A DNA stretch of 64,000 bases from positions 310,001 to 374,000 of the forward strand of contig NZ_VAUV01000006.1 in assembly GCF_005780165.1 (NCBI RefSeq), given 5' to 3'. Both the position numbers and the translations under genes were made by a program. Shown here in pieces: positions 12,159 through 30,871 of the stretch (within the stretch, counting starts at the first letter, position 1; every line of letters begins with the position of its first letter). Source of the DNA: Phragmitibacter flavus. Lineage in GTDB: Bacteria; Verrucomicrobiota; Verrucomicrobiia; Verrucomicrobiales; Verrucomicrobiaceae. The notes beneath the pieces are model-generated. The model searched no databases, had not been told where the DNA came from, and was given only the letters and a program-made list of their open reading frames with translations.

Positions 12159-14348
12159 CTACGTATTCGCCTTCGCCAACACCTCGCAAGCCTTCACATC
12201 CAGCTTGCCGCTCGACAAAATCGGAATCTCCGGCACGCGCACCAGCTTCTTCGGAATCCACAACGGCGGCACCCCGCGATCCAGCAGCTTGTAACGCAAA
12301 TCCAAAATCTCCTGCTGCACACTCCCACCCGGGATCGAACTCAACAAGATCAACGATTCCCCCTTGTCCTCATCGGGAACGCCCACCACGGCGATCTTGC
12401 GCGTCAATTCACTCTCCAGATTGAGCGCCTTCACCAACGCCTCCTCCACCGTCTCGTGCGGCACCATCTCGCCACCGACTTTGCTAAACCGGCTCAAGCG
12501 GCCTTCCACATACACAAACCCATCCGAGTCCACCCGGCCAATGTCTCCCGTGCGGAACCAGCCGTCCTTGATCACCTCTCCCGACTTCTTCGCATTCTTC
12601 AAATACCCGTTGAATACATTTGCCCCCTTGAACCAGATCATCCCGCTCTCATGCAGGCTGCGCGGCTCGTCGGTATCGACATCGGTTACCTTCAAGGCCA
12701 GACCCGGCATCAATTGCCCCACGCTGCCAAAACGATGACTTGGAAACACCGGAATGCTCGATGGCTCGCCATCCGCTCCCGTCAAATTCGGCAAATTCAC
12801 GTTGCTGGCCGGTGAGGTCTCTGTCAGTCCATACCCTTCCATCGGCGCAATCCCAAAACGCGCCTGAAACGCATCCGCCACCGTCTTCGGCAGCTTCTCC
12901 GCCCCCGTCACGATCATCTTAAGCGACGTGAACAATTCCGGATTCACCCCCTTCAAATACCCGCGCAAGAACGTCGGCGTCGTCACAAACAAGGTCACCT
13001 TGTATTTGTGGATCAGCTCTGCCAATTTTTTGCTCTCCAGCGGCGTCGGATAAGTCACCAGGTTAAACCCCTGAATCACCGGGAACCAACGCGTGACCGT
13101 GCAGCCAAAACTATGGAACAACGGCAAACACCCCAAAATGCCGTCCCGATGATCCATCGCAATCCGTGAACTGAACTGCGTCACATTGGCCAGCAAATTC
13201 CGATGCGTCAAAGACACCCCCTTCGGATCGCCACTGCTCCCACTGGTAAACAGCAGCAAGGCCTCCTCGTCGCCACCCTTCCTCGAAATCCCCAGCATCG
13301 CCGCCAACACCGGCGTCGGTAAAATCTTCGCCACCACAAACCAGCGCGCAATCGCACTTTTCAATCCTGGCACCAGGCGCTCCAAAAACATCATCTGCCG
13401 GTTCGGAGGCCAAGGAAAGGTCTGCAGCTTGCGCACAAACATGTCCGCCGTGATGTAATGATCCAGCTCCGCCTGCTTCATCGCGCTCTCCACTGCCGGA
13501 CGCCCCGCCGTGAAGTTCAAGTTCACCGGCACCTTGCCCGCAAACAACACCGCCAAATTCGCCACCATCCCACCCAATCCCGGCGGCAAAATGATGCCCA
13601 CCCGCGGCTTTTGGGTGGCCTTCTTCACCTCCTTGCTCAATGCGATCGCAATCGCCAAAACCTTGTCATACGGCCACACTTTTTCGTCCTTGCCGTCAAT
13701 CAGCGACGCTTTCGAACCATGCTTTTTCAGCCCCTTCAGCAACGCATAGGCAAGATTCCGACCCAGCTTCGGATTGGCCGAAAACACCGCCTCGCTCAAC
13801 TCAAGAATCGACTGCTGGTAGTTCGCCACCGACAACGTTTCTCCACTCAACAACGGACCGAACGCAAACACCGCCTTGCCTGCCGCCCATTTCGAATCAA
13901 TCGCCAGCACCAGCTCCTGGTTACGCTGCACAAACAAAGGCGCAATCGGCGCATCCAGCTGCACCATCATCTCCAACTGCGCCCCCAACACGCTCGTCAG
14001 CGAACCCGGCTGAACCGCCATCTCCGATGGCAGGTAAATCAACACCGACCCCGCATTCAGCACCTCCGAAACGCGCTGCCGCAACGGCCCCAGGTCATAA
14101 TCCAGCCGGCTGTCCGGCATCCTCAAAATCATCACGTCCTCCTGCTCTTCACGCAGCTTGTCCAACGCCGGAACCGTTGCTCCCTGCTGCACCAGATACG
14201 CCAGAGGGCGACCCTCCAAAAGGTGGTTCAGAACCCGCAACTCCTCGAAATTCAAATGACTGGGAACAATCAGCGCTCCGCTAGCAGGAATGTGCTCCCG
14301 GCCGTGGACAGGAATCGAAATCAGTTTGGGAGCTTTGGTCGTGGACAT
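12159..14348 (-). CDS. bifunctional acyltransferase / AMP-dependent acyl synthetase (Aas-like)
   Basis: 729 residues from the ATG at 14348 (the frame reaches 14387). Order: a PlsC-like acyltransferase domain (about 1-190), then an AMP-binding domain with LLLFTSGSSGDPKGVSLTHR, GYGLTETSPAS, GWFRTGDIG and the C-terminal SSGKLD lysine loop. This matches Aas, which re-acylates lysophosphatidylethanolamine and activates fatty acids with acyl carrier protein. Unlike Aas, the acyltransferase motif reads SHLNFEE (HX4E instead of HX4D), and the usual PEG motif is LPSEMAVQPG, so the acyltransferase half may be divergent or inactive. Unlike many Aas proteins no long transporter region is present. It lies downstream of the C39 peptidase on the same strand with 92 bp between. 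Confidence 0.8.
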   Translation of the reverse strand: MSTTKAPKLISIPVHGREHIPASGALIVPSHLNFEELRVLNHLLEGRPLAYLVQQGATVPALDKLREEQEDVMILRMPDSRLDYDLGPLRQRVSEVLNAGSVLIYLPSEMAVQPGSLTSVLGAQLEMMVQLDAPIAPLFVQRNQELVLAIDSKWAAGKAVFAFGPLLSGETLSVANYQQSILELSEAVFSANPKLGRNLAYALLKGLKKHGSKASLIDGKDEKVWPYDKVLAIAIALSKEVKKATQKPRVGIILPPGLGGMVANLAVLFAGKVPVNLNFTAGRPAVESAMKQAELDHYITADMFVRKLQTFPWPPNRQMMFLERLVPGLKSAIARWFVVAKILPTPVLAAMLGISRKGGDEEALLLFTSGSSGDPKGVSLTHRNLLANVTQFSSRIAMDHRDGILGCLPLFHSFGCTVTRWFPVIQGFNLVTYPTPLESKKLAELIHKYKVTLFVTTPTFLRGYLKGVNPELFTSLKMIVTGAEKLPKTVADAFQARFGIAPMEGYGLTETSPASNVNLPNLTGADGEPSSIPVFPSHRFGSVGQLMPGLALKVTDVDTDEPRSLHESGMIWFKGANVFNGYLKNAKKSGEVIKDGWFRTGDIGRVDSDGFVYVEGRLSRFSKVGGEMVPHETVEEALVKALNLESELTRKIAVVGVPDEDKGESLILLSSIPGGSVQQEILDLRYKLLDRGVPPLWIPKKLVRVPEIPILSSGKLDVKACEVLAKANT

Positions 14349-14440
14349 TTTCAGTGGGACGAAACATTCACCGTAACCAGAATCCATCTGATTACAAAGA
14401 ATGACTTGAGATAAAATCGCAGGCCCCGCCCCGGCGCGCC

Positions 14441-15136
14441 TTAAAAAACCGCCGATCCAGCCACCGGAACCCCATTCAACGCCTTTTTCGCCGCCAGCAC
14501 CTCAGGCCGCACCTCCGACCCGACCTTCACCGCCAACGCATGATCCGCCGGAAGTCCAAACCCCGACTTGCCCAGCACCAATGCCACCGTCGTCCACTGC
14601 TTGCTGAACCGGTCCATCGGAATCCGGATGTTGCCCCGGCTCGGGTCCGCCAAGAAAACCCGGTCCCCTGCCGTGCCGCGCAGCACCGCATAATGACGAT
14701 AATCCTTCGTTTCCAAGTGCACCAGCACCGGACCGCCCAGCTCGCCAATCGACTCAAACGGCAACTGCACCCCCACCGCCTGATACCCACGCCGCTCCGC
14801 CGCGTTCTGCAAATCCAGCAATGACAACCCCTCCTGCTCCCGGTTCTTCAACTCCGCCGGTGTCAGGTGCAAAAAAATGTCTCTCAGCAACTCCGCCTCC
14901 GACACCTCATCATCAAAATAATACTTCATCAACGTCGCCAGCGCCGCCGCCCCGCAGGAGTAATCCATCTGCTGCTTCACCACATTCAAATCCCGCAACT
15001 CCCGCCACGAGTTCCATTCACGCCTGACCGTCGTGTCGCCGCTGCTGTTGCCGCTGCTGCAGGCCGTTTGCAAAACACAAACCCCCGCCAGCATCAACGC
15101 CTGCGTCCTCATCAAGATCATCATGATTGATTTCAA
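14441..15136 (-). CDS. periplasmic C39-family cysteine peptidase lipoprotein, FapD-like
   Basis: 231 residues. A signal sequence ends in a lipobox (LQTAC at about 22-26), so the enzyme should be anchored in the envelope. The domain carries the C39 (double-glycine leader peptidase) pattern: VVKQQMDYSCGAAALATLMK with the oxyanion Gln and catalytic Cys, then KDYRHYAVLRG with the catalytic His, then FLADPSRGN with the Asp. There is no ABC transporter part, unlike bacteriocin exporters. FapD of the Pseudomonas functional-amyloid operon is a stand-alone enzyme of this kind. Its start overlaps the stop of the beta-barrel gene (15133-15136), indicating coupling, and a small secreted protein with a candidate leader is encoded upstream. 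Processing of that protein is an inference. Confidence 0.85.
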   Translation of the reverse strand: MKSIMMILMRTQALMLAGVCVLQTACSSGNSSGDTTVRREWNSWRELRDLNVVKQQMDYSCGAAALATLMKYYFDDEVSEAELLRDIFLHLTPAELKNREQEGLSLLDLQNAAERRGYQAVGVQLPFESIGELGGPVLVHLETKDYRHYAVLRGTAGDRVFLADPSRGNIRIPMDRFSKQWTTVALVLGKSGFGLPADHALAVKVGSEVRPEVLAAKKALNGVPVAGSAVF

Positions 15137-16395
15137 AAACGTTGGGTAACCGACGCTCCGAACACGCTGCTCGCCGCATCGTCCGACACTCCAAACGACA
15201 CAAACGAATCCAGATACCGGCCCGCCGCCAGCGAATAGGTCAGACCAAAACGAATCGAAATCGGCTCAAGCTCGCTGTCCTCAAGCTCCACGCCGCCGAC
15301 TTCCGTTTTCGAACGGAAATTGCCCTGCAACTGCGCGCTCAACGTCACCGCCTCGTTCACCGCAAAACCCATCCCAAAATTGTAACCAATCTGGTGTCCG
15401 GGCTCGATCCTTGTGTTGAACGCATTCCTCGAAAACCGGTAAAGATAATCCAAGCCCGCGAACAGAATCACCGGATCATACGATTTGATCAAGGTCAATC
15501 CCGCCCCCACGCCCCAATGCCCATCACCCAGCGCCACCACGTTCTCACCACCACTGTAGGGATCATCTCCCGTGGGAGCCAGGCCCGTGAGGTTCAAGAT
15601 CACCTCGGGCCGACCCTCCTTCTCACGCAAAAGCATCGCTTTTAACCCAAAAACCGTGTCCCCAATTCCAAACTCATCATTGTCCGACTTTGTGCCTCCC
15701 TGACGCACCTCCTCTTCCGAAGCATACAACAAAGGCAAACTCGCAAACGCCTCCACCCGGTCCATCAGTCCCAGCCTCACACTCACTCGCGACTCAAACT
15801 CTCGCCGCAATTCATCATTCGCGACGAAGGTGTTGTCCTCATTCAGCTCCGCAATGAAACTCTGCTTCTCATCCCGGCGATAGCTCAGCCCAATCTCCAC
15901 ATCAAACTGCCCCGGCCTCAGCAACACACTCGACTGACGCAAAAACAGCAAGCGCGAATCCGCCTCCTCAGGCTCCTGACCCAGTGGCTGCGTCGGCAAA
16001 CCCGTCGTCGTTGATTCCACCGCAGCCGTTGTTGTCGACTCACCCGTGACCGTCGACCCCGAACCAGATCCCGTCGCCGTGCTGCCCCCAAAAATCTTCG
16101 CCATGTCCGCCTCCGTCAGCATGGTCGGCTCACGACCCGACACCTGTGCCACATCCGCCCAATCCACCGTCACCGATCCAAATCGCGGCGAATTCACCAC
16201 CAGCTTCCCCTCTCCCAACGTCGTCGCCGTTCCGACCAAACGCTCGCCGTTGGCCAGCGTCACTGACATCGGCCTTCCATAATTCAGCGCCACCCCCGAC
16301 CCTGCTTCAGAAGCCTGCATCGATTTCGAACCCGTCGACACCAAGGTCGAAGCAACCATCCACAAACAACAATGACGAACAAACGCGCGGGACAT
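15133..16395 (-). CDS. outer-membrane beta-barrel transporter, FapF/MetA-like
   Basis: 420 residues. Signal peptide at about 1-29, then a small beta domain (VTLANGERLVGTATTLGEGK) similar in style to units in the TlpA protein at 7269. A Ser/Thr/Gly linker with many GSGS/TTT runs follows (about 100-130). From about 140 to the end there are alternating amphipathic strands typical of the transporter/MetA-pathway type barrels, ending in VTQRF with the terminal Phe of outer-membrane proteins. Pseudomonas FapF, the amyloid exporter, has a comparable soluble N-terminus plus barrel, though with a coiled coil that I do not see here. It lies between the small secreted protein gene and the C39 peptidase gene and overlaps the latter by 4 bases. 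Cargo export is inferred from context. Confidence 0.75.
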   Translation of the reverse strand: MSRAFVRHCCLWMVASTLVSTGSKSMQASEAGSGVALNYGRPMSVTLANGERLVGTATTLGEGKLVVNSPRFGSVTVDWADVAQVSGREPTMLTEADMAKIFGGSTATGSGSGSTVTGESTTTAAVESTTTGLPTQPLGQEPEEADSRLLFLRQSSVLLRPGQFDVEIGLSYRRDEKQSFIAELNEDNTFVANDELRREFESRVSVRLGLMDRVEAFASLPLLYASEEEVRQGGTKSDNDEFGIGDTVFGLKAMLLREKEGRPEVILNLTGLAPTGDDPYSGGENVVALGDGHWGVGAGLTLIKSYDPVILFAGLDYLYRFSRNAFNTRIEPGHQIGYNFGMGFAVNEAVTLSAQLQGNFRSKTEVGGVELEDSELEPISIRFGLTYSLAAGRYLDSFVSFGVSDDAASSVFGASVTQRF

Positions 16396-16420
16396 GAGAA
16401 AAGAAACTTTTGCTGAACAG

Positions 16421-16442
16421 GCCGCACCCTAAGCGGCAGCTT
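16421..16442 (+). terminator. hairpin followed by T-run in the 5' leader of the barrel gene
   Basis: GCCGC/GCGGC stem with a 7-base loop followed within 4 bases by a T-run on the plus strand. No plus-strand gene ends here. On the minus strand the same hairpin would lie in the leader of the barrel gene, so its role is unclear. Confidence 0.3.
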
Positions 16443-16452
16443 TTTTGATTCA

Positions 16453-16488
16453 AAAAAACCCCGGCGCAAACTTCCATCTACGTCGGGG
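16453..16488 (-). terminator. intrinsic terminator after the small secreted protein gene
   Basis: On the minus strand, CCCCG...CGGGG arms (about 8 bp including one wobble pair) around a 15-base loop are followed by seven T residues (plus-strand A-run at 16453-16458). It sits between the 138-residue gene and the barrel gene, which would give more message for the first gene than for the export genes. Confidence 0.5.
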
Positions 16489-16515
16489 CAAGGCTCTCAA
16501 TTTAGATCATCACAC

Positions 16516-16932
16516 TCAAGGATTTGCGACTTTCGTGCTTTGGTAGTTCACCAAACGACCGGTATCCAAAATACCAAGGTTCGTGGTGGTGGTGAAGCTG
16601 CCTTGGGCAGGAGTAGACGTGCCGCTGAAAAGCAAGCCAAGGATGTTGGTGTTCGTGGTTGATGCTGGACGGGCACCGCTGGTTCCTACCGAAGTCAGAC
16701 GCAAAACGGCGTTTTGCTCCAACAAGGTAATCGTCAAAGTCGAACCAATCAGGTTGATTGGAAGGACCAGATCACCGCGCACTTCGTTCATCTCCGATTT
16801 ATCAAGTTTCACCACTTGATGTTTGCTGGCGACATTCTTGAGAATCGCCGGCATGTTTTCTTCAGCCTTGGCAGCGGTGCCGCCAAAAGCGAGAGCAAGG
16901 ACTGCCATCAGAGTAAGAGATTTCGTTTTCAT
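16516..16932 (-). CDS. small secreted protein, candidate cargo of the C39/barrel pair
   Basis: 138 residues. Sec signal at about 1-23 (cleavage after AKA). Residues 43-54 read LDKSEMNEVRGD, which matches the double-glycine leader pattern L(-12), E(-8), M(-7), V(-4), G(-2), with Asp in place of the usual Gly, Ala or Ser at -1. The predicted mature part (about 84-86 residues) is rich in Thr, Ser, Asn, Leu and Gly with few charges, as expected of a fibre or surface subunit. It contains no Cys and no recognised family. It is first in a minus-strand set with the barrel and C39 genes and has its own promoter-like sequence and downstream terminator. Identity as export cargo or amyloid subunit is inference. 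Confidence 0.7.
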   Translation of the reverse strand: MKTKSLTLMAVLALAFGGTAAKAEENMPAILKNVASKHQVVKLDKSEMNEVRGDLVLPINLIGSTLTITLLEQNAVLRLTSVGTSGARPASTTNTNILGLLFSGTSTPAQGSFTTTTNLGILDTGRLVNYQSTKVANP

Positions 16933-17158: not shown

Positions 17159-18268
17159 TCAGCTGATTTGATGCAGGGATAGCAAAGCCTCTTCCGCTGC
17201 CGCGCATATACCGGCTTCCGTGATCAATCCCGTCACCAGCCTTGCCGGGGTCACATCAAAGGCATAGTTCGCCGCCGCACTTTGCGCGGGAAAAAGCGTC
17301 ACCTCACCCACTTCGTTTGAGCTGGCCGACCATCCCTCCATCATGCGCACCTCCTCATCGCCGCGTTGCTCAATTGGAATGTCCCGAACTCCATCGCGCA
17401 AGTTCCAGTCAATCGTGCTCGAAGGCAGCGCCACATAAAACGGCACCCCATTGTCGCGCGCCGCCAGCGCTTTCAAATAGGTGCCGATCTTGTTCGCCAC
17501 ATCGCCCTGACACGATACCCGGTCCGCTCCCGTGATCACCATGTCCACCATCCCATGCTGCATCAAATGCCCGCCCGTGTTGTCGCAAATCACCGTGTGC
17601 GGCACCCCCTGTTGCGCCAGTTCCCACGCCGTCAAACGCGCGCCCTGATTCCGTGGCCGCGTCTCATCCACCCACACATGCACCGCAATCCCGGCCCGCT
17701 GCGCCGCATAAATCGGAGCCGTCGCACTGCCATGATCCACAAACGCCAGCCACCCTGCATTGCAATGGGTCAATAGGTTCACCACTCCCCCATTCTTCGC
17801 CCGCGACAGTTCCTCAATCACCTTCAATCCGTGTTCCCCAATCGCCTGACAAGCCGCCACGTCCTCTTCCGCAATCGCCAGCGCCGTCTCCAATGACACC
17901 CTCACCGCCACTTCTCGGTCCGCTACTTCCCCAATTGCCCGCAGCTGACGATCCACCGCATAAGCCAGATTCACCGCCGTCGGCCTTGTCCCCCTCAACC
18001 GATCCGCCCTCGACTTCAGCCCTCTTGCAAAATCTTCCTCCCCTGCCGCCTCCATCGCCGCCAGCCACATCCCAAATCCCGCCGTCGCCCCGATGCATCC
18101 CGCCCCGCGCACCCACATGTCTTTGATCGCAATTGCCACCTCCTCCACCGAGTTCAAATCCACTACCTCGAATTTCCACGGCAACAACCGCTGATCAATG
18201 ATCCTCACCCTCGCAGTTCCTTCCGTCACCGCCCACACCGTTTGAAAAGATTGTCCATCCACAAGCAT
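17159..18268 (-). CDS. mtnA: S-methyl-5-thioribose-1-phosphate isomerase
   Basis: 369 residues, full length for the family. Converts methylthioribose-1-phosphate to methylthioribulose-1-phosphate in the methionine salvage pathway, in the cytosol. Seen: the N-terminal DQRLLPWKFEVVDLNSVEEV region, MWVRGAGCIGATAGFG, LTHCNAGWLAF with the catalytic Cys, VWVDETRPRNQGARLTAWEL, the Asp-containing MVITGADRVSCQGDVANKIGT, and YVALPSSTIDW. The remainder of the pathway is not in this window. The adjacent upstream region on this strand is a pyrimidine-rich tandem repeat, so the promoter is not visible. The related regulatory eIF2B-type proteins lack this set of residues, so the call is firm. Confidence 0.93.
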   Translation of the reverse strand: MLVDGQSFQTVWAVTEGTARVRIIDQRLLPWKFEVVDLNSVEEVAIAIKDMWVRGAGCIGATAGFGMWLAAMEAAGEEDFARGLKSRADRLRGTRPTAVNLAYAVDRQLRAIGEVADREVAVRVSLETALAIAEEDVAACQAIGEHGLKVIEELSRAKNGGVVNLLTHCNAGWLAFVDHGSATAPIYAAQRAGIAVHVWVDETRPRNQGARLTAWELAQQGVPHTVICDNTGGHLMQHGMVDMVITGADRVSCQGDVANKIGTYLKALAARDNGVPFYVALPSSTIDWNLRDGVRDIPIEQRGDEEVRMMEGWSASSNEVGEVTLFPAQSAAANYAFDVTPARLVTGLITEAGICAAAEEALLSLHQIS

Positions 18269-18302
18269 TCCTCATTCTAGCCCTGCGTGTTCTTCGTGCA
18301 AT

Positions 18303-18432
18303 CCTCCTCCTGCTCTTACTCCTCCTCCTGCTCTTACTCCTCCTCCTGCTCTTACTCCTCCTCCTACTCCTCCTCCTACTCCTACTCCTACTCCTACTCC
18401 TACTCCTCCTCCTACTCCTACTCCTACTCCCC
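18303..18432 (+). repeat. pyrimidine-only tandem array (18-bp units, then 6-bp units)
   Basis: Three identical 18-bp units CCTCCTCCTGCTCTTACT at 18303-18356 pass into a run of CTCCTA/CTCCTC-type 6-bp units up to 18432. Apart from a few G and A bases the strand is all C and T for about 130 bp, with mirror symmetry in parts. It begins about 35 bp upstream of mtnA. Confidence 0.8.
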
Positions 18433-18488
18433 ACTCAAAAGCCCCATCACCCTCCGCGCCATCAAACTCCCAACGCATCCTTCCCACC

Positions 18489-18523
18489 ATCGTCCTCGTC
18501 CTCCTACTCGAACTCGTCCTCGA
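18489..18523 (-). repeat. purine-rich GAGGACGAG element, inverted copy
   Basis: Reverse-complement copy of the dispersed 35-bp element, with GAGTTCGAG in the middle as in the copy at 6168-6201. Confidence 0.65.
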
Positions 18524-18688
18524 AATCCACGTCATCATCAGCTCCCAGGCGGATCAATTCCATGGTGAATGGGCAACATGGAAGCTTCAGTCGCGCCTCG
18601 CGGGAAGTAGGAGGAAGAGTAAGAGTAGGAGGGGCCCCACCCGCTGTGATTCATTGGAAATGCTGCGTGTCGGCCTGTCTGCTATTTT

Positions 18689-24531: not shown

Positions 24532-24640
24532 GGATTCATAACTTTATCGTCCTCTCCACCCCTTTTCCCGGTGTCGTCAGCACGCGGAATTATTTCTATT
24601 CAAAAGTGTCGAATTGACTCGTTTAGAACAATTCAACACC

Positions 24641-27600
24641 ATGCAAGCTTCACGCAGCCAGCTCCTCCGATCATTTTCGTCCTTTGCCGCCCTGTTCGCA
24701 CTGGGCTGCTGCGCTCTTGCCCTGCCTTTTGCTTCCGTGGTTGCCCAAACTACCTGGACCGCCACCACCGACTCCACCTGGAGCACCCCGACCAACTGGA
24801 GCGCCGGCGAACCCACCCTCCTCATCGACGCCATCCTCCCCACCCCCATCCCCGTCGACGGTGCCACCCTCACCCTTTCCAACGGCGAACAAGCCAGATC
24901 CCTCACCTTCAACGCCAGCGGCTACATCCTCAATAGCGGCACCCTCGAACTCGGCAGCCCCGGCAACATCACCGTTACCAACGCCCTCCACACCGCCACC
25001 ATCAACAGCCTCCTCACCGGCACCAGCGGCCTCACCAAACTCGGTGCCGGCAACCTCACCCTCGGCTCAGCCAACTCCTACACCGGCCTCACCCGCGTTC
25101 TCAACGGCACCCTCACCCTCGCCAGCGGCAGTTCCATCGGCGTCGCCAGCACTCCTGGCAGCCTGCAAGTCGCCGAACGCACCACCGCCACCCTCATCGC
25201 CCAGGCCGGCAGCCAGCTCAGCGTCGGCTCCGGTGCCGCCGACTTCCTCCACGTCGGCTCCCGCGGCAACATCGCCGGCAGCGCCGCCACCACCGGCACC
25301 CTCAACCTCTCCGCCCTCAACAACTTCACCGCCAACGTCGGCGAATTCCACATCGGCGTCGGCACCACCTCCGGCTCCGGCACCACCCGCGGCATCGTCA
25401 ACCTCGCCACCAACAACACCATCAACGCCAGCACCGCCATCATTGTCGGCGACATGGTCCCCGCCCTCGACAACTCTGCCGTCGGCAACACCAGCCAGCT
25501 CAACTTCGGCTCCGGCAACAATACCATCACCACCCCCACCCTCGTGATCGGTGGCAGCCGCACCCGCGCCACCTCCACCCTCGCCGCCGGCGGCACCCTC
25601 ACCCTCAACAACGGCGCCAGCAGCACCGACCTCCACATCGGCCGTCAAAACGTCGAGAACACCGCCACCTCCAGCGAAGGCAACCTCGATCTCGGCAACG
25701 GCACCTTCATCGCCACCCTTGACGAACTCACCATCGGCACCCGCACCTCCGGAGCCCAGGCCAACACCGGCAGCGCCACCGGCACCCTCACCATCGGCAC
25801 CTCCGTCACCAACAACATCACCGCCAACACCCTCACCCTCGGCAGCCACGGCTCAGGAGTCGGCGGCACCAGTCAGGGCACCCTCAACTTCGCCGGCGGC
25901 ACCTTCACCGTCGCCAACGACATCACCCTCGCCAACCACACCGCCAACGGCGGCAACGCCCGTGGCACCCTCAACCTCACCGGCGGCACCTTCACCGTCG
26001 ACGGCAACATCACCAAAACCGACAAAACCACCGCCACCGCCGTCATCATCATCGACGGAGCCAACGTCGACATGACCGGCGGCAGCATCACCTCCAGCCA
26101 GCTCGCCGTGCGCAGCGGCACCCTCGGCAACGTCACCTCCGTCACCCTCGACGCCCACGCCACCACCACCGGCACCGGCAACACCGCCGACGCCCTCATC
26201 ATTCGCGACTACAACCTCGCCTTCGACATCGCCCTCACCGGCGCCACCACCAGCAACGTTCACTACGAAGCCACCACCCCCACCGCCAGCGGAGCCACGC
26301 TCAGCGGCAACCTCAACCTCGGCAACGCCATCCGCACCTTCAACATCGAAGACAACGCCCTCGCACCCATCGACCTCGACATCACCGGCATCATCACCAG
26401 CACCGGCACCTCCGGCGGCCTCAACAAAACCAACACCGGCACCCTCCGCCTCAGCAACGCCAACACCCACACCGGACCCACCACCGTCAGCGACGGCCTC
26501 CTCATCCTCAACCACGCCCTCGCCGTCCAAAACAGCACGCTTACCGTCAATACCCCCACCGGCCTCCAGTTCGCCTCAACCATCACCAACTTCACCCTCG
26601 GCGGCCTCGCCGGCAACACCACCGCCAGCATCACCCTCAACGACTCCGCCGCCCAACCCGTCAACCTCACCATCGGCCAAAACAACGCCGCCACCACCTA
26701 CTCCGGAACCATCAGCGGCAGCGGCACCCTCACCAAAACCGGCAACGGCATTCTCACCCTCGCCGGCCCCGACGCCAACACCTACACCGGCCTCACCACC
26801 GTCAACGGCGGCAGCATCCTCCTCGCCAAAACCTCCAACACCGACGCCATCTCAGGCGACCTCCTCCTCACCAATGGTGGCGACCTCCGCTTCTCCGGCA
26901 ACACCAACCAGCTCGCCGACACCACCAACATCACCATCAACGGCAACGACAGCACCTTCAACGGCACCAGCACCAACGCCAACATCGCCATCCCCATCGA
27001 AACCATCGCCTCCCTCACCGTCACCCGCGGCGTCGTCAACAGCGGCCCCACCGGCTCCCAAATCACCGTCACCGGTGCCACCGCCTACACCGGCACCACA
27101 GGAACCGCCCCCGGCAACAGCACCATGTATATCGGCAACAGCGGCGGCCAGTTCCAAACCCACTCCCTTTCCCTCACCGACATGACCGGCCTCGGCGACG
27201 TCGACAAAGCCAACAGCTTCACCGTCTTCGGCAACAGCAACACCCTCCAATCCACCCTCCACGTCGGACCCGGCGGCCTCACCCTCAACAATAGCAACCT
27301 CCACCTCTTCAAAGCCACCAGCTCCGTCAACCTCGGCAGCCGCCTCATCCTCGATGGCAACCTCACCGTCAACGGCTCCACCCCCTCCGCCATCCTCACC
27401 ACCACCGGCACCTTCGCCCAGTCCGAAATCGAACTCAGCTCCACCACCGGCACCGTCAACCGCACCATCGAAACCAACGCCGACCTCACCATCAATCCCG
27501 ACATCAACAACGGCAACGCCACCACTGCCGGCATCACCAAAACCGGCGCCGCCAAACTCACCCTCGCCGGCAACAACAGCTACACCGGCCAGACCCAAAT

Positions 27601-30600
27601 CAACGGCGGCACCCTGGCCTTCCTCACCAGCGCCAACCTCGGCGACTCCACCGCCACCGCCAACACCATCGGCATCAACAACGCCACCCTTCAATACAAC
27701 GACTCCATCACCACCAATCTCGGCACCAACCGCGACCTCATCCTCTCCACCGGCACCGCCACCATCGACACCGCCTTCACCAACGGCAACCTTATCCTCT
27801 CCGGCGACATCACCGGCAGCGGCCCCGGCACCTTCACCAAAACCGGCGCAGGCACCCTCACCCTCGCCGGCACCGACCTCTCCGGACTCAACAATCGCGG
27901 CCTCGACCTCGACCAGGGCACCCTCAGTTTCGTCAACCACATCGGCACCGCCATCAACCTCGGCACCGCCCCCCTCTCCCTCGGCAACAACACCGCCCTC
28001 GCCTTCGACATCGGCTCCCTCACCAACTTCGACTCCATCAACACCACCGCCGTCGCCACCCTCGACCCCGACGCCAACATCACCCTCCTCGTCACCGCCC
28101 TCGCCGACATCACCCCCAACACCACCTACAACCTCGTCACCGCAGGCACCGGCAGCAACTTCGACGACCCCACCTACACCTGGAACCTCAGCCTCGCCGG
28201 CAGCTACCAATATCAACTCAACCTCACCGACACCCAGGTCCAGCTCCAAACCCTCGCCGCCATCACCGGAGACGCTTGGTGGCAGGGCGACCTCCCCACC
28301 TCAAGCTGGAGCAGCATCATCCTCGGCCCCACCAACAACACCAACTGGGCCACCGACAACACCGGCACCACCGACCGAGAAGCCGGTCCCGGGCCCGACA
28401 CCACCGTCTACTTCAGCACCACCAACGCCACCGGCCCCACCATCACCACCACCCTCGACAACAACTTCACCATCAACGACCTCATCTTCACCCCCAACCC
28501 CAACCCCGTCACCTCCGTCACCATTGCCCAGGGCACCACCGGCACCCTGACCCTCAACCCCACCGACCCCACCACCGGCATTCAAGTCCAGGACAACGCC
28601 GGCACCATCACCATCACCGCCCCCCTCCAACTCGGGGCTGATCAAACCTGGAACGTCTCCAACCTCGCTGCCTCCCTCGCCGTCAGCGGCCCCATCAGTG
28701 GCGGTTCCACCACCGACCTCACCAAGACCGGCCTCGGCACCCTCACCCTCACCGGCACCAACACCCACACCGGACGCACCATCGTCAACGAAGGCACCCT
28801 CGTCATCAACTCCGAAGCTGCTCTCGGCGCCAACCCCGACACCCCCACCCCCGACCAGCTCACCCTCAACGGCGGCACCCTCCAAACCACCGCCACCTTC
28901 GCCATCAACGACCCCAACCGCGGCATCACCCTCGGCACCAGCAGCGGAACTTTCAACACCAACAACGGCACCACCCTTACCGTCGACGCCATCATCACCG
29001 GCACCGGCAACCTCACCAAATCCGGCGGCACCGGCGCCCTCGTGTTCTCCAAAGCCAACACCTACACCGGCATCACCACCCTCCTCACCGGCACCACCAC
29101 CATTGCCAACGGCGGCTCCATCGGCGTCGCAACCCCCACCGCCAACAGCCTGCAAATCGCCGACCGCAGCAGCGCCACCCTCAACGTCCAGGCCGGTGGC
29201 GATCTCAAAGTCGGCAACGGCTCCAGCAGCTACCTCTACGTTGGCACCCGCACCACCGATGCAGGCACCGCCGCCACCACCGGCACCATGAACCTCTCCG
29301 CCTCCACCAACTTCACCGCCAACGTCGGGAAATTCTACATCGGCGTCGCTGACACCGCGAGCGCCACCGGCACCACCCAGGGCATCGTCACCCTCGCCCA
29401 AAACAACGACATCATCGCCAGCACCGAAATCCTCGTCGGCCAGATGACCCCCGCCCTTGGGAACACCGGCGTCACCAGCCAGCTCAACTTCGGCTCCGGC
29501 ATCAACAACATCACCACCCCCAGCCTCACCATCGGCAGCCGCAAAAGCGCCGCCACCTCCACCATCGCCACTGGCGGAACCCTCAACCTCAGCAACGGCG
29601 CAGGCAAAACCAACCTCTACCTCGGCCGCAACAACAACACCGGCACCAGCACCCACGCCACCGGAACCCTCAACCTCACCAACGGCACCTTCAACGCCAC
29701 CCTCGGCATCGTCATCATCGGCGAACGCAGTGGCAACGACGGCACCAGCACCGGCAGCGGCGGCGCAGGCTCCGGCACCGGCACCCTTACCCTCGGCACC
29801 GCCAACCACAACATCACCGCCGACACCCTCATCCTGGGCAACCTCCTCGTCGCAGGATCCACCACCACCACCCAGGGCACCCTCAACATGGCCGGCGGCA
29901 CCTTCACCATCGCCACCAACATCGGCCTCGGCATCCACACCTCCGGCACCGCAGGCACCCTCGCCCAAGGCACCATCAACCTCACCGGCGGCACCCTCAT
30001 CGTCGGCGGCAACATCACCACCGCCAACAAAACCGACTCCACCTCCATCGTCACCGTCAACGGCGGCACCCTCGACATGACCGACGGCACCATCAACGCC
30101 GACACCCTCAACGCCCAGTCCGGTGCCCTCAAAGACGTCGCCCAAATCAACACCGGCGACAGCGCCACGCCCGCCGCCCTCACCAAAACCACCGGCGGCA
30201 ACCTCCTCCTCCTCGGCACCAACAGCTACACCGGAGCCACCCTCGTCAATGAAGGCGTCCTCGAAGTCCGCGGCACCTCCGGCACCGGCACCACCACCAT
30301 CCTTAACACCGCCACCCTCGCCGGTGCCGGCACCATCCAAAGCACCACCGGCACCACCATCCAAACCGGCGGCCAGCTCAAAGCCGGCAACAACCTCGGC
30401 GACGACATCGGCACCCTCACCTTCAACAGCGACCTCACCCTCGACACCGGCTCCATCACCACTTTCCAACTCTCCGCCGCCACCGGCACCTTCACCGACC
30501 CCCTCGCCATCGACCCCACCTTCCTCAACGGCACCCCCGCCAACCATGACCACATCGACATCACCGGCACCCTCAACCTCGCCACCGACACCACCATCAA

Positions 30601-30871
30601 AATCGACCTCCTCAATTACATCCCCAACTACGGCGATGTCTTCAACCTTTTCGATTGGACCATCGCCGGCAACGCCCTCCCCAACGGTTTCGATCCCGAC
30701 ACCGACTTCGACTTCACCAACGCCGTCCTCAACGACGGTCAGACCTGGGCTCGCGACCGTTTTCTCAGCGACGGCGTCATCTACGTCGTCCCCGAACCCT
30801 CCCGCGCCCTCCTCATCCTCCTCGGCAGCACCCTCCTCAACCTCACCCGCCGCCGTCGCACCTCAAAGTAG
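24641..30871 (+). CDS. giant surface protein with autotransporter-type strand repeats and PEP-CTERM tail
   Basis: 2,076 residues from the ATG at 24641 (a TTG start at 24614 is in frame but unlikely). Signal peptide at about 1-36, then a long Gly/Thr/Asn/Ser-rich series of strand repeats of the autotransporter-associated (PATR) kind, such as GLTKLGAGNLTLGSANSYTG and TKTGNGILTLAGPDANTYTG. Two segments (nt about 25075-26150 and 29055-30150) are diverged copies of one ~360-residue block. There is no C-terminal barrel; the end is VPEPSRALLILLG plus a basic tail, a PEP-CTERM sorting signal for exosortase. It should be a beta-helical surface or matrix protein. Codons are almost all C-ending. Confidence 0.88.
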   Translation: MQASRSQLLRSFSSFAALFALGCCALALPFASVVAQTTWTATTDSTWSTPTNWSAGEPTLLIDAILPTPIPVDGATLTLSNGEQARSLTFNASGYILNSGTLELGSPGNITVTNALHTATINSLLTGTSGLTKLGAGNLTLGSANSYTGLTRVLNGTLTLASGSSIGVASTPGSLQVAERTTATLIAQAGSQLSVGSGAADFLHVGSRGNIAGSAATTGTLNLSALNNFTANVGEFHIGVGTTSGSGTTRGIVNLATNNTINASTAIIVGDMVPALDNSAVGNTSQLNFGSGNNTITTPTLVIGGSRTRATSTLAAGGTLTLNNGASSTDLHIGRQNVENTATSSEGNLDLGNGTFIATLDELTIGTRTSGAQANTGSATGTLTIGTSVTNNITANTLTLGSHGSGVGGTSQGTLNFAGGTFTVANDITLANHTANGGNARGTLNLTGGTFTVDGNITKTDKTTATAVIIIDGANVDMTGGSITSSQLAVRSGTLGNVTSVTLDAHATTTGTGNTADALIIRDYNLAFDIALTGATTSNVHYEATTPTASGATLSGNLNLGNAIRTFNIEDNALAPIDLDITGIITSTGTSGGLNKTNTGTLRLSNANTHTGPTTVSDGLLILNHALAVQNSTLTVNTPTGLQFASTITNFTLGGLAGNTTASITLNDSAAQPVNLTIGQNNAATTYSGTISGSGTLTKTGNGILTLAGPDANTYTGLTTVNGGSILLAKTSNTDAISGDLLLTNGGDLRFSGNTNQLADTTNITINGNDSTFNGTSTNANIAIPIETIASLTVTRGVVNSGPTGSQITVTGATAYTGTTGTAPGNSTMYIGNSGGQFQTHSLSLTDMTGLGDVDKANSFTVFGNSNTLQSTLHVGPGGLTLNNSNLHLFKATSSVNLGSRLILDGNLTVNGSTPSAILTTTGTFAQSEIELSSTTGTVNRTIETNADLTINPDINNGNATTAGITKTGAAKLTLAGNNSYTGQTQINGGTLAFLTSANLGDSTATANTIGINNATLQYNDSITTNLGTNRDLILSTGTATIDTAFTNGNLILSGDITGSGPGTFTKTGAGTLTLAGTDLSGLNNRGLDLDQGTLSFVNHIGTAINLGTAPLSLGNNTALAFDIGSLTNFDSINTTAVATLDPDANITLLVTALADITPNTTYNLVTAGTGSNFDDPTYTWNLSLAGSYQYQLNLTDTQVQLQTLAAITGDAWWQGDLPTSSWSSIILGPTNNTNWATDNTGTTDREAGPGPDTTVYFSTTNATGPTITTTLDNNFTINDLIFTPNPNPVTSVTIAQGTTGTLTLNPTDPTTGIQVQDNAGTITITAPLQLGADQTWNVSNLAASLAVSGPISGGSTTDLTKTGLGTLTLTGTNTHTGRTIVNEGTLVINSEAALGANPDTPTPDQLTLNGGTLQTTATFAINDPNRGITLGTSSGTFNTNNGTTLTVDAIITGTGNLTKSGGTGALVFSKANTYTGITTLLTGTTTIANGGSIGVATPTANSLQIADRSSATLNVQAGGDLKVGNGSSSYLYVGTRTTDAGTAATTGTMNLSASTNFTANVGKFYIGVADTASATGTTQGIVTLAQNNDIIASTEILVGQMTPALGNTGVTSQLNFGSGINNITTPSLTIGSRKSAATSTIATGGTLNLSNGAGKTNLYLGRNNNTGTSTHATGTLNLTNGTFNATLGIVIIGERSGNDGTSTGSGGAGSGTGTLTLGTANHNITADTLILGNLLVAGSTTTTQGTLNMAGGTFTIATNIGLGIHTSGTAGTLAQGTINLTGGTLIVGGNITTANKTDSTSIVTVNGGTLDMTDGTINADTLNAQSGALKDVAQINTGDSATPAALTKTTGGNLLLLGTNSYTGATLVNEGVLEVRGTSGTGTTTILNTATLAGAGTIQSTTGTTIQTGGQLKAGNNLGDDIGTLTFNSDLTLDTGSITTFQLSAATGTFTDPLAIDPTFLNGTPANHDHIDITGTLNLATDTTIKIDLLNYIPNYGDVFNLFDWTIAGNALPNGFDPDTDFDFTNAVLNDGQTWARDRFLSDGVIYVVPEPSRALLILLGSTLLNLTRRRRTSK

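What the first reader, a model, noticed from the sequence alone, without database searches (positions are those of the whole stretch)
14441..16932. Fap-like export module: small secreted cargo, outer-membrane barrel, C39 peptidase lipoprotein
Three genes on the minus strand in the order candidate cargo, beta-barrel, C39 lipoprotein, the last two overlapping by 4 bases, match the parts list of the Pseudomonas functional-amyloid (Fap) system: FapD is a stand-alone C39 peptidase, FapF an outer-membrane exporter, and the cargo is small and Ser/Thr/Gly/Asn-rich. Fap is best known from proteobacteria. The protease here is a lipoprotein, and the barrel has a small beta domain where FapF has a coiled coil, so this may be a distinct, perhaps minimal, system of verrucomicrobia.
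Basis: partly seen in the sequence, partly recalled or inferred. Interest (0 to 1): 0.8.

Follow-up and report, generated by a model that had tools for sequence, protein, structure and literature searches.

The report
Minimal Fap-like peptide export module
Three neighbouring genes of a verrucomicrobial bacterium look like a stripped-down version of the machine that exports amyloid proteins in Pseudomonas: a small secreted precursor, a trimming protease and an outer-membrane pore; the cutting signals found here suggest what that protease cuts, a question left open in the Pseudomonas system.

Summary
The trio is real. The peptidase is a stand-alone C39 protein related to FapD; the barrel is a FapF homologue by sequence and predicted fold. 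Such leaders are strongly enriched beside C39/FapF pairs, including FapE- and FapA-like genes and a haemocin precursor. So cargo and machine probably belong together.

Amyloid is not supported: the cargo has no Fap repeat and no FapE match, and the C39 lies outside the Fap clade. No sampled verrucomicrobial relative showed the trio. One Beggiatoales genome has it in the same order, another almost so, with different, Cys/Arg-rich cargos. Of the barrels compared, only these carry small LSM/SH3-like domains where FapF has a coiled coil. The window's barrel also holds a strong C39 site (LTEADMAKIFGG) between that domain and the pore, so the protease may cut its own exporter, as once speculated for FapF.

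Verdict: a new variant of the known C39/FapF-type export module. Export is likely; whether the product is a fibre, an antibacterial or another surface peptide is open.

The parts
16516..16932 (-). Cargo precursor, 138 aa: Sec signal (residues 1-23), leader region (24-54), mature core (55-138)
   Evidence: Translation. One copy in its genome; no relative in 141 other related genomes at E <= 0.01 or in the plasmid collection at E <= 1.
16864..16932 (-). Sec signal peptide of the cargo (cut predicted after AKA)
   Evidence: Read from the sequence; no signal-peptide predictor was available.
16771..16806 (-). C39-type leader element LDKSEMNEVRGD (residues 43-54); cut predicted after GD
   Evidence: 14.5 bits with a profile trained without the window; 1 of 434 control ORFs and 12 of 20000 shuffles reach it.
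16519..16770 (-). Predicted mature cargo, 84 aa, rich in T, L, S, G, N; no Cys; net charge +2; no Fap repeat
   Evidence: The single-sequence fold model is useless (mean pLDDT 34).
16452..16489 (-). Terminator-like hairpin with T-run between cargo and barrel; possible attenuator
   Evidence: RNA fold: -20.2 kcal/mol over 67 nt, z -2.2, 7 of 200 shuffles as stable; over 117 nt z only -1.1. Not reported by the consensus scan.
15133..16395 (-). FapF-type outer-membrane barrel protein, 420 aa
   Evidence: PDB sequence search: FapF only, 3.9e-12; Foldseek FapF 6.9e-20; VIA-align Z 29.6; PF13557 9.4e-16.
16150..16287 (-). Small LSM/SH3-like beta domain (residues 37-82) in place of the FapF coiled coil
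   Evidence: A profile built from the window, L055 and L168 found it in no other ORF searched at E <= 10; model strands 43-78 at low confidence.
16084..16119 (-). C39-type site LTEADMAKIFGG inside the barrel protein (residues 93-104), before the S/T/G-rich linker
   Evidence: 19.8 bits, best of 421 window ORFs; 0 of 1000 shuffles reach it.
15136..15933 (-). Predicted 12-stranded barrel (residues 155-420) with the PTG motif
   Evidence: AlphaFold blocks mostly 90 or more pLDDT; the strand count is my reading of the DSSP string.
14441..15136 (-). FapD-related C39 peptidase, probable lipoprotein; Q55, C61, H148, D164
   Evidence: PF03412 3.5e-25; FapD model 1e-26; the four residues are invariant in an eight-row alignment. 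The only C39 match in its genome at E <= 0.001.

Best explanation
The locus is a minimal secretion module of the C39/FapF type. The cargo precursor crosses the inner membrane by Sec and loses its signal peptide (inferred). In the periplasm the probably membrane-anchored C39 peptidase recognises the leader LDKSEMNEVRGD and cuts after GD (inferred from motif and enrichment; not shown biochemically). The freed 84-residue core leaves through the FapF-type barrel (inferred from homology; the FapF role is published). The small beta domain at the barrel's N-terminus does the periplasmic work that the coiled coil does in FapF: cargo capture or plug control (inferred). The barrel protein has its own C39-type site between that domain and the linker to the plug, so the peptidase may also trim the exporter and so switch the gate (hypothesis). 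The module was probably acquired laterally, from a lineage shared with Beggiatoales (inferred). The core is more likely a surface-acting peptide (coat, antibacterial or self-acting) than a Fap-type amyloid, but its role is not settled.
For: FapD/FapF homology. Leader statistics: window leader against controls; 132 of 3688 ORFs within 3 kb pass against 7 of the same reversed and 8 of 1541 distant ORFs; 80 of 98 C39 loci have at least one such ORF, 75 of 98 on the strand of the C39 or barrel gene. In a Fap-type operon the FapE-like gene and the FapA-positioned gene carry the motif; a haemocin precursor carries LSQKEMSEVKGG. Same gene order in L168 and, with an apparent frame break in the barrel's signal region, L055. 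C39 and barrel trees both put the window with Beggiatoales. Barrel site.
Against: The cargo leader ends in GD, not GG. The enrichment profile was trained on loci of the same kind, so the 80 of 98 is partly circular; of 11 loci not used in training 8 have clear leaders (L168, L172-L178), but L172-L178 are related to training loci and L176 is the same sequence as L133 at the C39. The N. gonorrhoeae row L107 showed neither barrel nor leader with my profiles, so the published nap arrangement was not reproduced here. In L172 the FapC-like gene has no motif and the FapB-like one only a weak form. Published mass spectrometry saw complete N-terminal processing of FapE only, with FapA-D peptides throughout (PMC5557850, passages). 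Two relatives in the Beggiatoales order have C39 without a barrel in the DNA read (L169, L170) and one is broken (L171). The window-Beggiatoales grouping has moderate support (83 for C39, 87 for the barrel, the latter with long branches). No expression data.
Confidence: 0.75

Rival explanations
1. A true minimal Fap amyloid system: the cargo is the fibre subunit, processed and exported to build extracellular amyloid.
For: FapD and FapF homologues; core half S/T/N/Q/G; FapE-like proteins and FapA-positioned proteins elsewhere carry the same kind of leader.
Against: No minimal Fap repeat in the cargo, while four FapB/FapC-like controls have 2-3 each; no FapE family match; C39 outside the 54-row Fap group at 98; the FapB model finds nothing in the genome, but its 14 control genomes were silent too; the closest modules carry short cationic Cys-rich cargos.
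Confidence: 0.2
2. A bacteriocin-like or self-lysing peptide exporter of the haemocin or nap kind.
For: C39 in the 29-row part of the tree that holds two Neisseria rows; the haemocin plasmid has C39, HmcD (FapF-core profile 55.6 bits) and a precursor whose leader is 6 of 12 identical to the window's; one relative's cargo (L056) weakly matches Bacteriocin_IIc, 0.0068, under its cut-off; nap precedent (PMC11798529, passages).
Against: No immunity gene recognised beside the trio: the neighbours are an AMP-binding enzyme and an IF-2B-family gene. The core is longer than those of L055 and L168, weakly charged and without Cys.
Confidence: 0.3
3. An ordinary COG4313/MetA-type uptake porin next to an unrelated C39 protein and small secreted protein.
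For: PF13557 above its cut-off; the COG4313 channel 4rl8 is the second fold match, Z 25.0.
Against: FapF leads by sequence and fold; a barrel accompanies C39 in 70 of 80 named loci; same trio order in L168; cargo leader.
Confidence: 0.04

Closest known systems
Fap functional-amyloid system (fapABCDEF; PMC5557850, PMC6173800)
   Same: Stand-alone Sec-exported C39 peptidase, FapF-type 12-strand barrel, exported protein; C39-type leader in the FapE-like and FapA-positioned proteins of operons examined here.
   Different: No FapB/FapC repeat subunits seen; barrel has an LSM/SH3-like domain instead of the coiled coil; C39 probably a lipoprotein and outside the Fap group; three genes, not six.
Neisseria nap island (NapP C39, NapF FapF homologue, NapABC peptides; PMC11798529, passages)
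   Same: C39 plus FapF homologue plus small GG-type peptides as published; two Neisseria C39 rows lie in the same part of the tree.
   Different: nap has several cationic peptides and extra genes; the window has one longer, nearly neutral cargo and a GD leader. Not established here that L107 is NapP: no barrel or leader was detected in that locus.
Haemocin locus of Avibacterium plasmid p250
   Same: C39, a barrel-like protein (HmcD) that matches the FapF-core profile, and a precursor with leader LSQKEMSEVKGG.
   Different: It has an ATPase and an annotated immunity gene; neither was recognised beside the window trio.
   Same: Same gene order, C39 with 49% and 45% identity, LSM/SH3-like barrel domain, leader LxxxEMxxxxG in L055 and MxxxEMxxxxG in L168.
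   Different: Two tandem beta domains instead of one; predicted mature cargos of 13 and 18 residues, Cys/Arg-rich; the C39 site in the barrel is weak in L168 (4.4 bits) and I saw none in L055.

Membership tests
Fap system | FapD-type stand-alone C39 peptidase | tested here: met
   NF058616 1e-26 over 30-189, PF03412 3.5e-25; but 93.6 bits is under the equivalog cut-off of 330, so it is a homologue, not FapD itself.
Fap system | FapF-type 12-stranded barrel | tested here: met
   PDB FapF 3.9e-12, Foldseek 6.9e-20, Z 29.6; NF058560 57.3 bits against a cut-off of 700.
Fap system | FapF periplasmic coiled coil ('All FapF homologues', PMC6173795, passages) | tested here: not met
   Beta domain instead; model of that part is of low confidence.
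Fap system | FapB/FapC subunits with imperfect amyloid repeats | tested here: not met
   No repeat in the cargo by the published minimal pattern; four positive controls ring. Elsewhere in the genome only the FapB model was tried, and its controls were silent, so that part is inconclusive.
Fap system | FapE | tested here: not met
   Cargo matches no NCBIfam family at E <= 1; an L172 FapE-like gene scores 7.9e-31, itself under the cut-off.
Fap system | Extracellular amyloid fibres | not testable with these tools
   Needs the bench.
C39/FapF-type GG-leader peptide export (nap/haemocin-like) | C39 plus FapF-family barrel as neighbours | tested here: met
C39/FapF-type GG-leader peptide export (nap/haemocin-like) | Sec-targeted precursor with a C39 leader | tested here: met
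   Motif position and score; last residue D, not G; signal peptide read by eye.
Haemocin-type bacteriocin | Linked immunity gene | tested here: not met
   Flanks are an AMP-binding enzyme and an IF-2B-family gene; immunity proteins are diverse, so an unrecognised one is not excluded.
COG4313/MetA uptake channel | Closest by sequence and fold, without C39 partner | tested here: not met
   FapF is closer and a C39 partner is present; PF13557 itself does match.

The most novel reading that the evidence does not exclude
The C39 peptidase processes both cargo and exporter: by cutting the barrel protein at LTEADMAKIFGG it frees the pore and plug from the periplasmic domain, a protease-set gate. This would apply to FapF-type exporters more widely, and leaders of this type mark the unknown FapD substrates.
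Probability: 0.3. Interest if true: 0.75.

Novelty: new variant of a known kind. Interest (0 to 1): 0.6.

Why it matters
The substrate of FapD was called undetermined in 2018, and Fap proteins were said to lack canonical C39 sequences in 2017 (PMC6173800, PMC5557850, passages). The leader profile found here, shared by the window cargo, FapE-like and FapA-positioned proteins and a haemocin precursor, gives exact cut sites to test. It would tie amyloid export, published gonococcal autolysis peptides and haemocin to one kind of exporter. The window and Beggiatoales barrels also go against the published statement that all FapF homologues have a coiled coil, which offers a simple system for asking what that domain does.

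Tried and rejected
Amyloid reading: tested by Fap repeat pattern, FapE model and tree; not supported. Ordinary porin: rejected. Verrucomicrobia-wide system: rejected for the samples searched. Promoters: 2 consensus matches against 1.0 expected, no weight given. Cargo structure: mean pLDDT 34, not used. FapB in the own genome: nothing, but the 14 control genomes were silent too. Viral contigs: 103 pattern matches, none a relative. Homologues of the cargo: none in 141 relatives or plasmids. Barrel sites: 7 of 60 barrels at p < 0.01 and 15 at p < 0.05, the window among both, and some rows closely related, so such a site is not general. Positive control L107 (N. gonorrhoeae): C39 found, barrel and leader not.

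Papers: passages of PMC5557850, PMC3792158, PMC6173800, PMC6173795 and PMC11798529 were read; all others were seen only in search listings. Ten literature searches showed me no paper on this variant; most subscription papers are not in that library.
Full report
WHAT IS THERE. Three minus-strand genes lie between an AMP-binding enzyme (12159-14387) and an IF-2B-family gene (17159-18268; mtnA-like by recall). In transcription order they are cargo 16516-16932, barrel 15133-16395 and C39 peptidase 14441-15136. The 4-base overlap depends on a TTG start; an ATG follows 12 bases downstream. G+C is 0.51 for the cargo, 0.57 for the barrel, 0.59 for the C39 gene and 0.59 for the window. A hairpin with a T-run lies between cargo and barrel (67 nt, -20.2 kcal/mol, z -2.2, 7 of 200 shuffles as stable; over 117 nt z -1.1), so the cargo may be made in excess of the exporter (inference).

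THE PEPTIDASE. PF03412 3.5e-25 and the NCBIfam FapD model 1e-26 at 93.6 bits, under its cut-off of 330. Q55, C61, H148 and D164 are invariant in an eight-row alignment of the window with L055, L168-L170 and L056-L058; their catalytic roles are recalled from the C39 family. It is the only C39 match in its genome at E <= 0.001.

THE BARREL. A sequence search of the PDB returns FapF entries only (best 3.9e-12). The AlphaFold model (mean pLDDT 75.6; blocks of the barrel mostly 90 or more) matches FapF first by Foldseek (6.9e-20) and by VIA-align (Z 29.6, rmsd 1.6, 257 aligned; COG4313 channel 25.0). The N-terminus shows no coiled coil. It has a small beta domain with a pattern like VxLxxGExLxGT (residues 37-82). 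A profile built from the window, L055 and L168 segments finds no other such domain, at E <= 10, among the ORFs of the loci searched. L168 hits the LSM model weakly (0.017, below cut-off), hence 'LSM/SH3-like' is tentative. A published statement says that all FapF homologues have coiled coils (PMC6173795, passages).

THE CARGO AND ITS LEADER. After the signal peptide (cut predicted after AKA) comes LDKSEMNEVRGD. In small proteins next to C39 genes of plasmid-borne sets the same place holds, for example, LTDDEMSSLRGG. I made a 12-column profile from 35 leaders of relatives, the window left out and seven visually poor motifs dropped. The window scores 14.5 bits; 1 of 434 Sec-like control ORFs and 12 of 20000 shuffles reach that. 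Across 98 C39 loci, 132 of 3688 ORFs within 3 kb pass 10 bits, against 7 of the same ORFs reversed and 8 of 1541 ORFs more than 4.5 kb away; 80 of 98 loci have at least one, 75 of 98 on the strand of the C39 or barrel gene, 68 of 98 at 13 bits. ORF lists are mechanical and contain false ORFs, and a few of the 80 rest on doubtful ones (such as L101, L119, L129, L132). An earlier strict pattern gave 47 of 365 near against 11 of 434 far. Of 11 loci fetched later and not used in training, L168 and L172-L178 have clear leaders; L169 and L170 are doubtful and L171 has none. L172-L178 are not independent of the training set: they are related to L084, L113 and L133, and L176 equals L133 at the C39. 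In L172 the FapE-like gene (NCBIfam FapE 7.9e-31, the match covering the motif) carries LSDQELGQLRGR, and the gene at the FapA position carries LTDHQLEQLRGR; the FapB-like gene has only a weak form and the FapC-like gene none. A haemocin precursor carries LSQKEMSEVKGG, 6 of 12 identical to the window leader. A Neisseria gonorrhoeae row (L107) gave neither leader nor barrel with these profiles, so they miss, or that record lacks, the published nap parts; N. dentiae (L071) has both.

THE BARREL AS A SUBSTRATE. The best-scoring motif of all 421 window ORFs is not in the cargo but in the barrel protein: LTEADMAKIFGG, 19.8 bits, residues 93-104, between the beta domain and the S/T/G-rich linker to the plug. 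No shuffle of 1000 reached it. Among 60 barrel proteins, 7 have such a site at p < 0.01 and 15 at p < 0.05, the window included, against 0.6 and 3 expected; some of these rows are close relatives. Rouse and colleagues raised the possibility that FapD cuts FapF at this junction (PMC5557850, passages).

RELATIVES. One scan of named genomes gave 448 C39 relatives, the best 80 kept; 70 of these 80 have a barrel in the fetched DNA. The nearest are L055 (Ca. Halobeggiatoa, 49%), L056 and L057 (a gammaproteobacterial MAG), L058 (Methyloversatilis; no barrel found) and L059 (Methyloglobulus). In the order of L055, 4 further genomes of 42 have close C39 homologues: L168 is a full trio in the window's order, L169 and L170 show no barrel in the DNA read, and L171 is broken. 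Predicted cargo cores differ: RCHWRSRRCCRRR in L055 (two near-identical copies) and RCPRSRGCCKRSSKSRGR in L168. Among 142 relatives including the own genome, 20 others match the C39 (2.1e-7 or weaker), and among 387 phylum genomes 20 others match the FapD model (4.4e-17 or weaker), mostly in long ORFs that look like transporters; none of these loci held a relative of the barrel (flanks about 1.5 kb). The barrel profile finds 9 other genomes of 387, best 5.7e-8; two of them also have a C39 match, but on another contig. The phylum is inferred: L120 is titled Verrucomicrobia, and a genome of its phylum (G813) has a match at the same place as one listed as the window's own order (G129). L120 itself has a fuller Fap-like set. 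In its phylum 10 other genomes of 239 match a C39 profile, 1.6e-13 or weaker.

TREES. C39 tree of 99 rows: the window joins four Beggiatoales-order rows (83) within a 29-row part (92) that also holds Neisseria, Helicobacter and Methyloversatilis rows; the 54-row Fap group is split off at 98. Barrel tree of 85 rows: the window groups with L168, L055 (present twice) and a long-branch Paceibacterota row (87), and with L056, L057 and L059 at 99 (8 rows); the program warned of long branches, the window's among them. Both are quick trees with SH-aLRT only, rooted at the midpoint. Pore and peptidase thus seem to travel together; lateral transfer is inferred.

WHAT IT DOES. Shown: homology, fold, motif enrichment, synteny. 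Inferred: Sec export, leader removal in the periplasm, export through the barrel. Open: the role of the 84-residue core. Fap amyloid 0.2, bacteriocin-like or self-acting peptide 0.3; the rest is another surface or signalling role. Published precedent exists for both kinds of cargo (Fap; nap, PMC11798529, passages). Co-located fapD and fapF were already reported in five additional phyla (PMC6173800, passages), so the pair as such outside Proteobacteria is not new; the beta-domain barrel, the explicit leaders and the canonical site in the barrel are what I did not find in print with the searches listed in Tried and rejected.

Noticed in passing
L191 1482-2360: HmcD of the Avibacterium haemocin plasmid matches the FapF-core profile (55.6 bits), so haemocin seems to use a FapF-type exporter; NCBIfam gives it no name at E <= 0.1.
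   Followed up: partly
L172 5042-5863 and 9123-9569; L173-L178: FapE-like and other Sec-type genes of Fap-type operons carry C39-type leaders (mostly ending RGR or RGG) after the signal peptide; they are candidate FapD substrates.
   Followed up: partly
L120 5771-9954: A genome titled Verrucomicrobia with C39, a FapF-type barrel and three leader-bearing proteins (MxDxEMD type): a fuller Fap-like set in that phylum.
   Followed up: partly
L080 3242-5911, L082 3742-6048: Aquificales loci with three or four successive leader-bearing proteins of 84 to 453 residues before C39 and barrel.
   Followed up: no
L173 4807-10423; L174 2909-12842: Two C39 genes in one locus; in L174 two different Fap-type sets lie side by side with regulator-like genes.
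   Followed up: no
L107: C39 row titled N. gonorrhoeae without a barrel or leader by my profiles, unlike the published nap island.
   Followed up: no
window 24614-30871: A 2085-residue ORF with PATR repeats, autotransporter-like.
   Followed up: no
window about 18195-18540: Low-complexity simple repeat just upstream of the IF-2B-family gene, open in several frames (Ser/Arg-, Ser/Tyr- and Gly/Val-rich ORFs).
   Followed up: no
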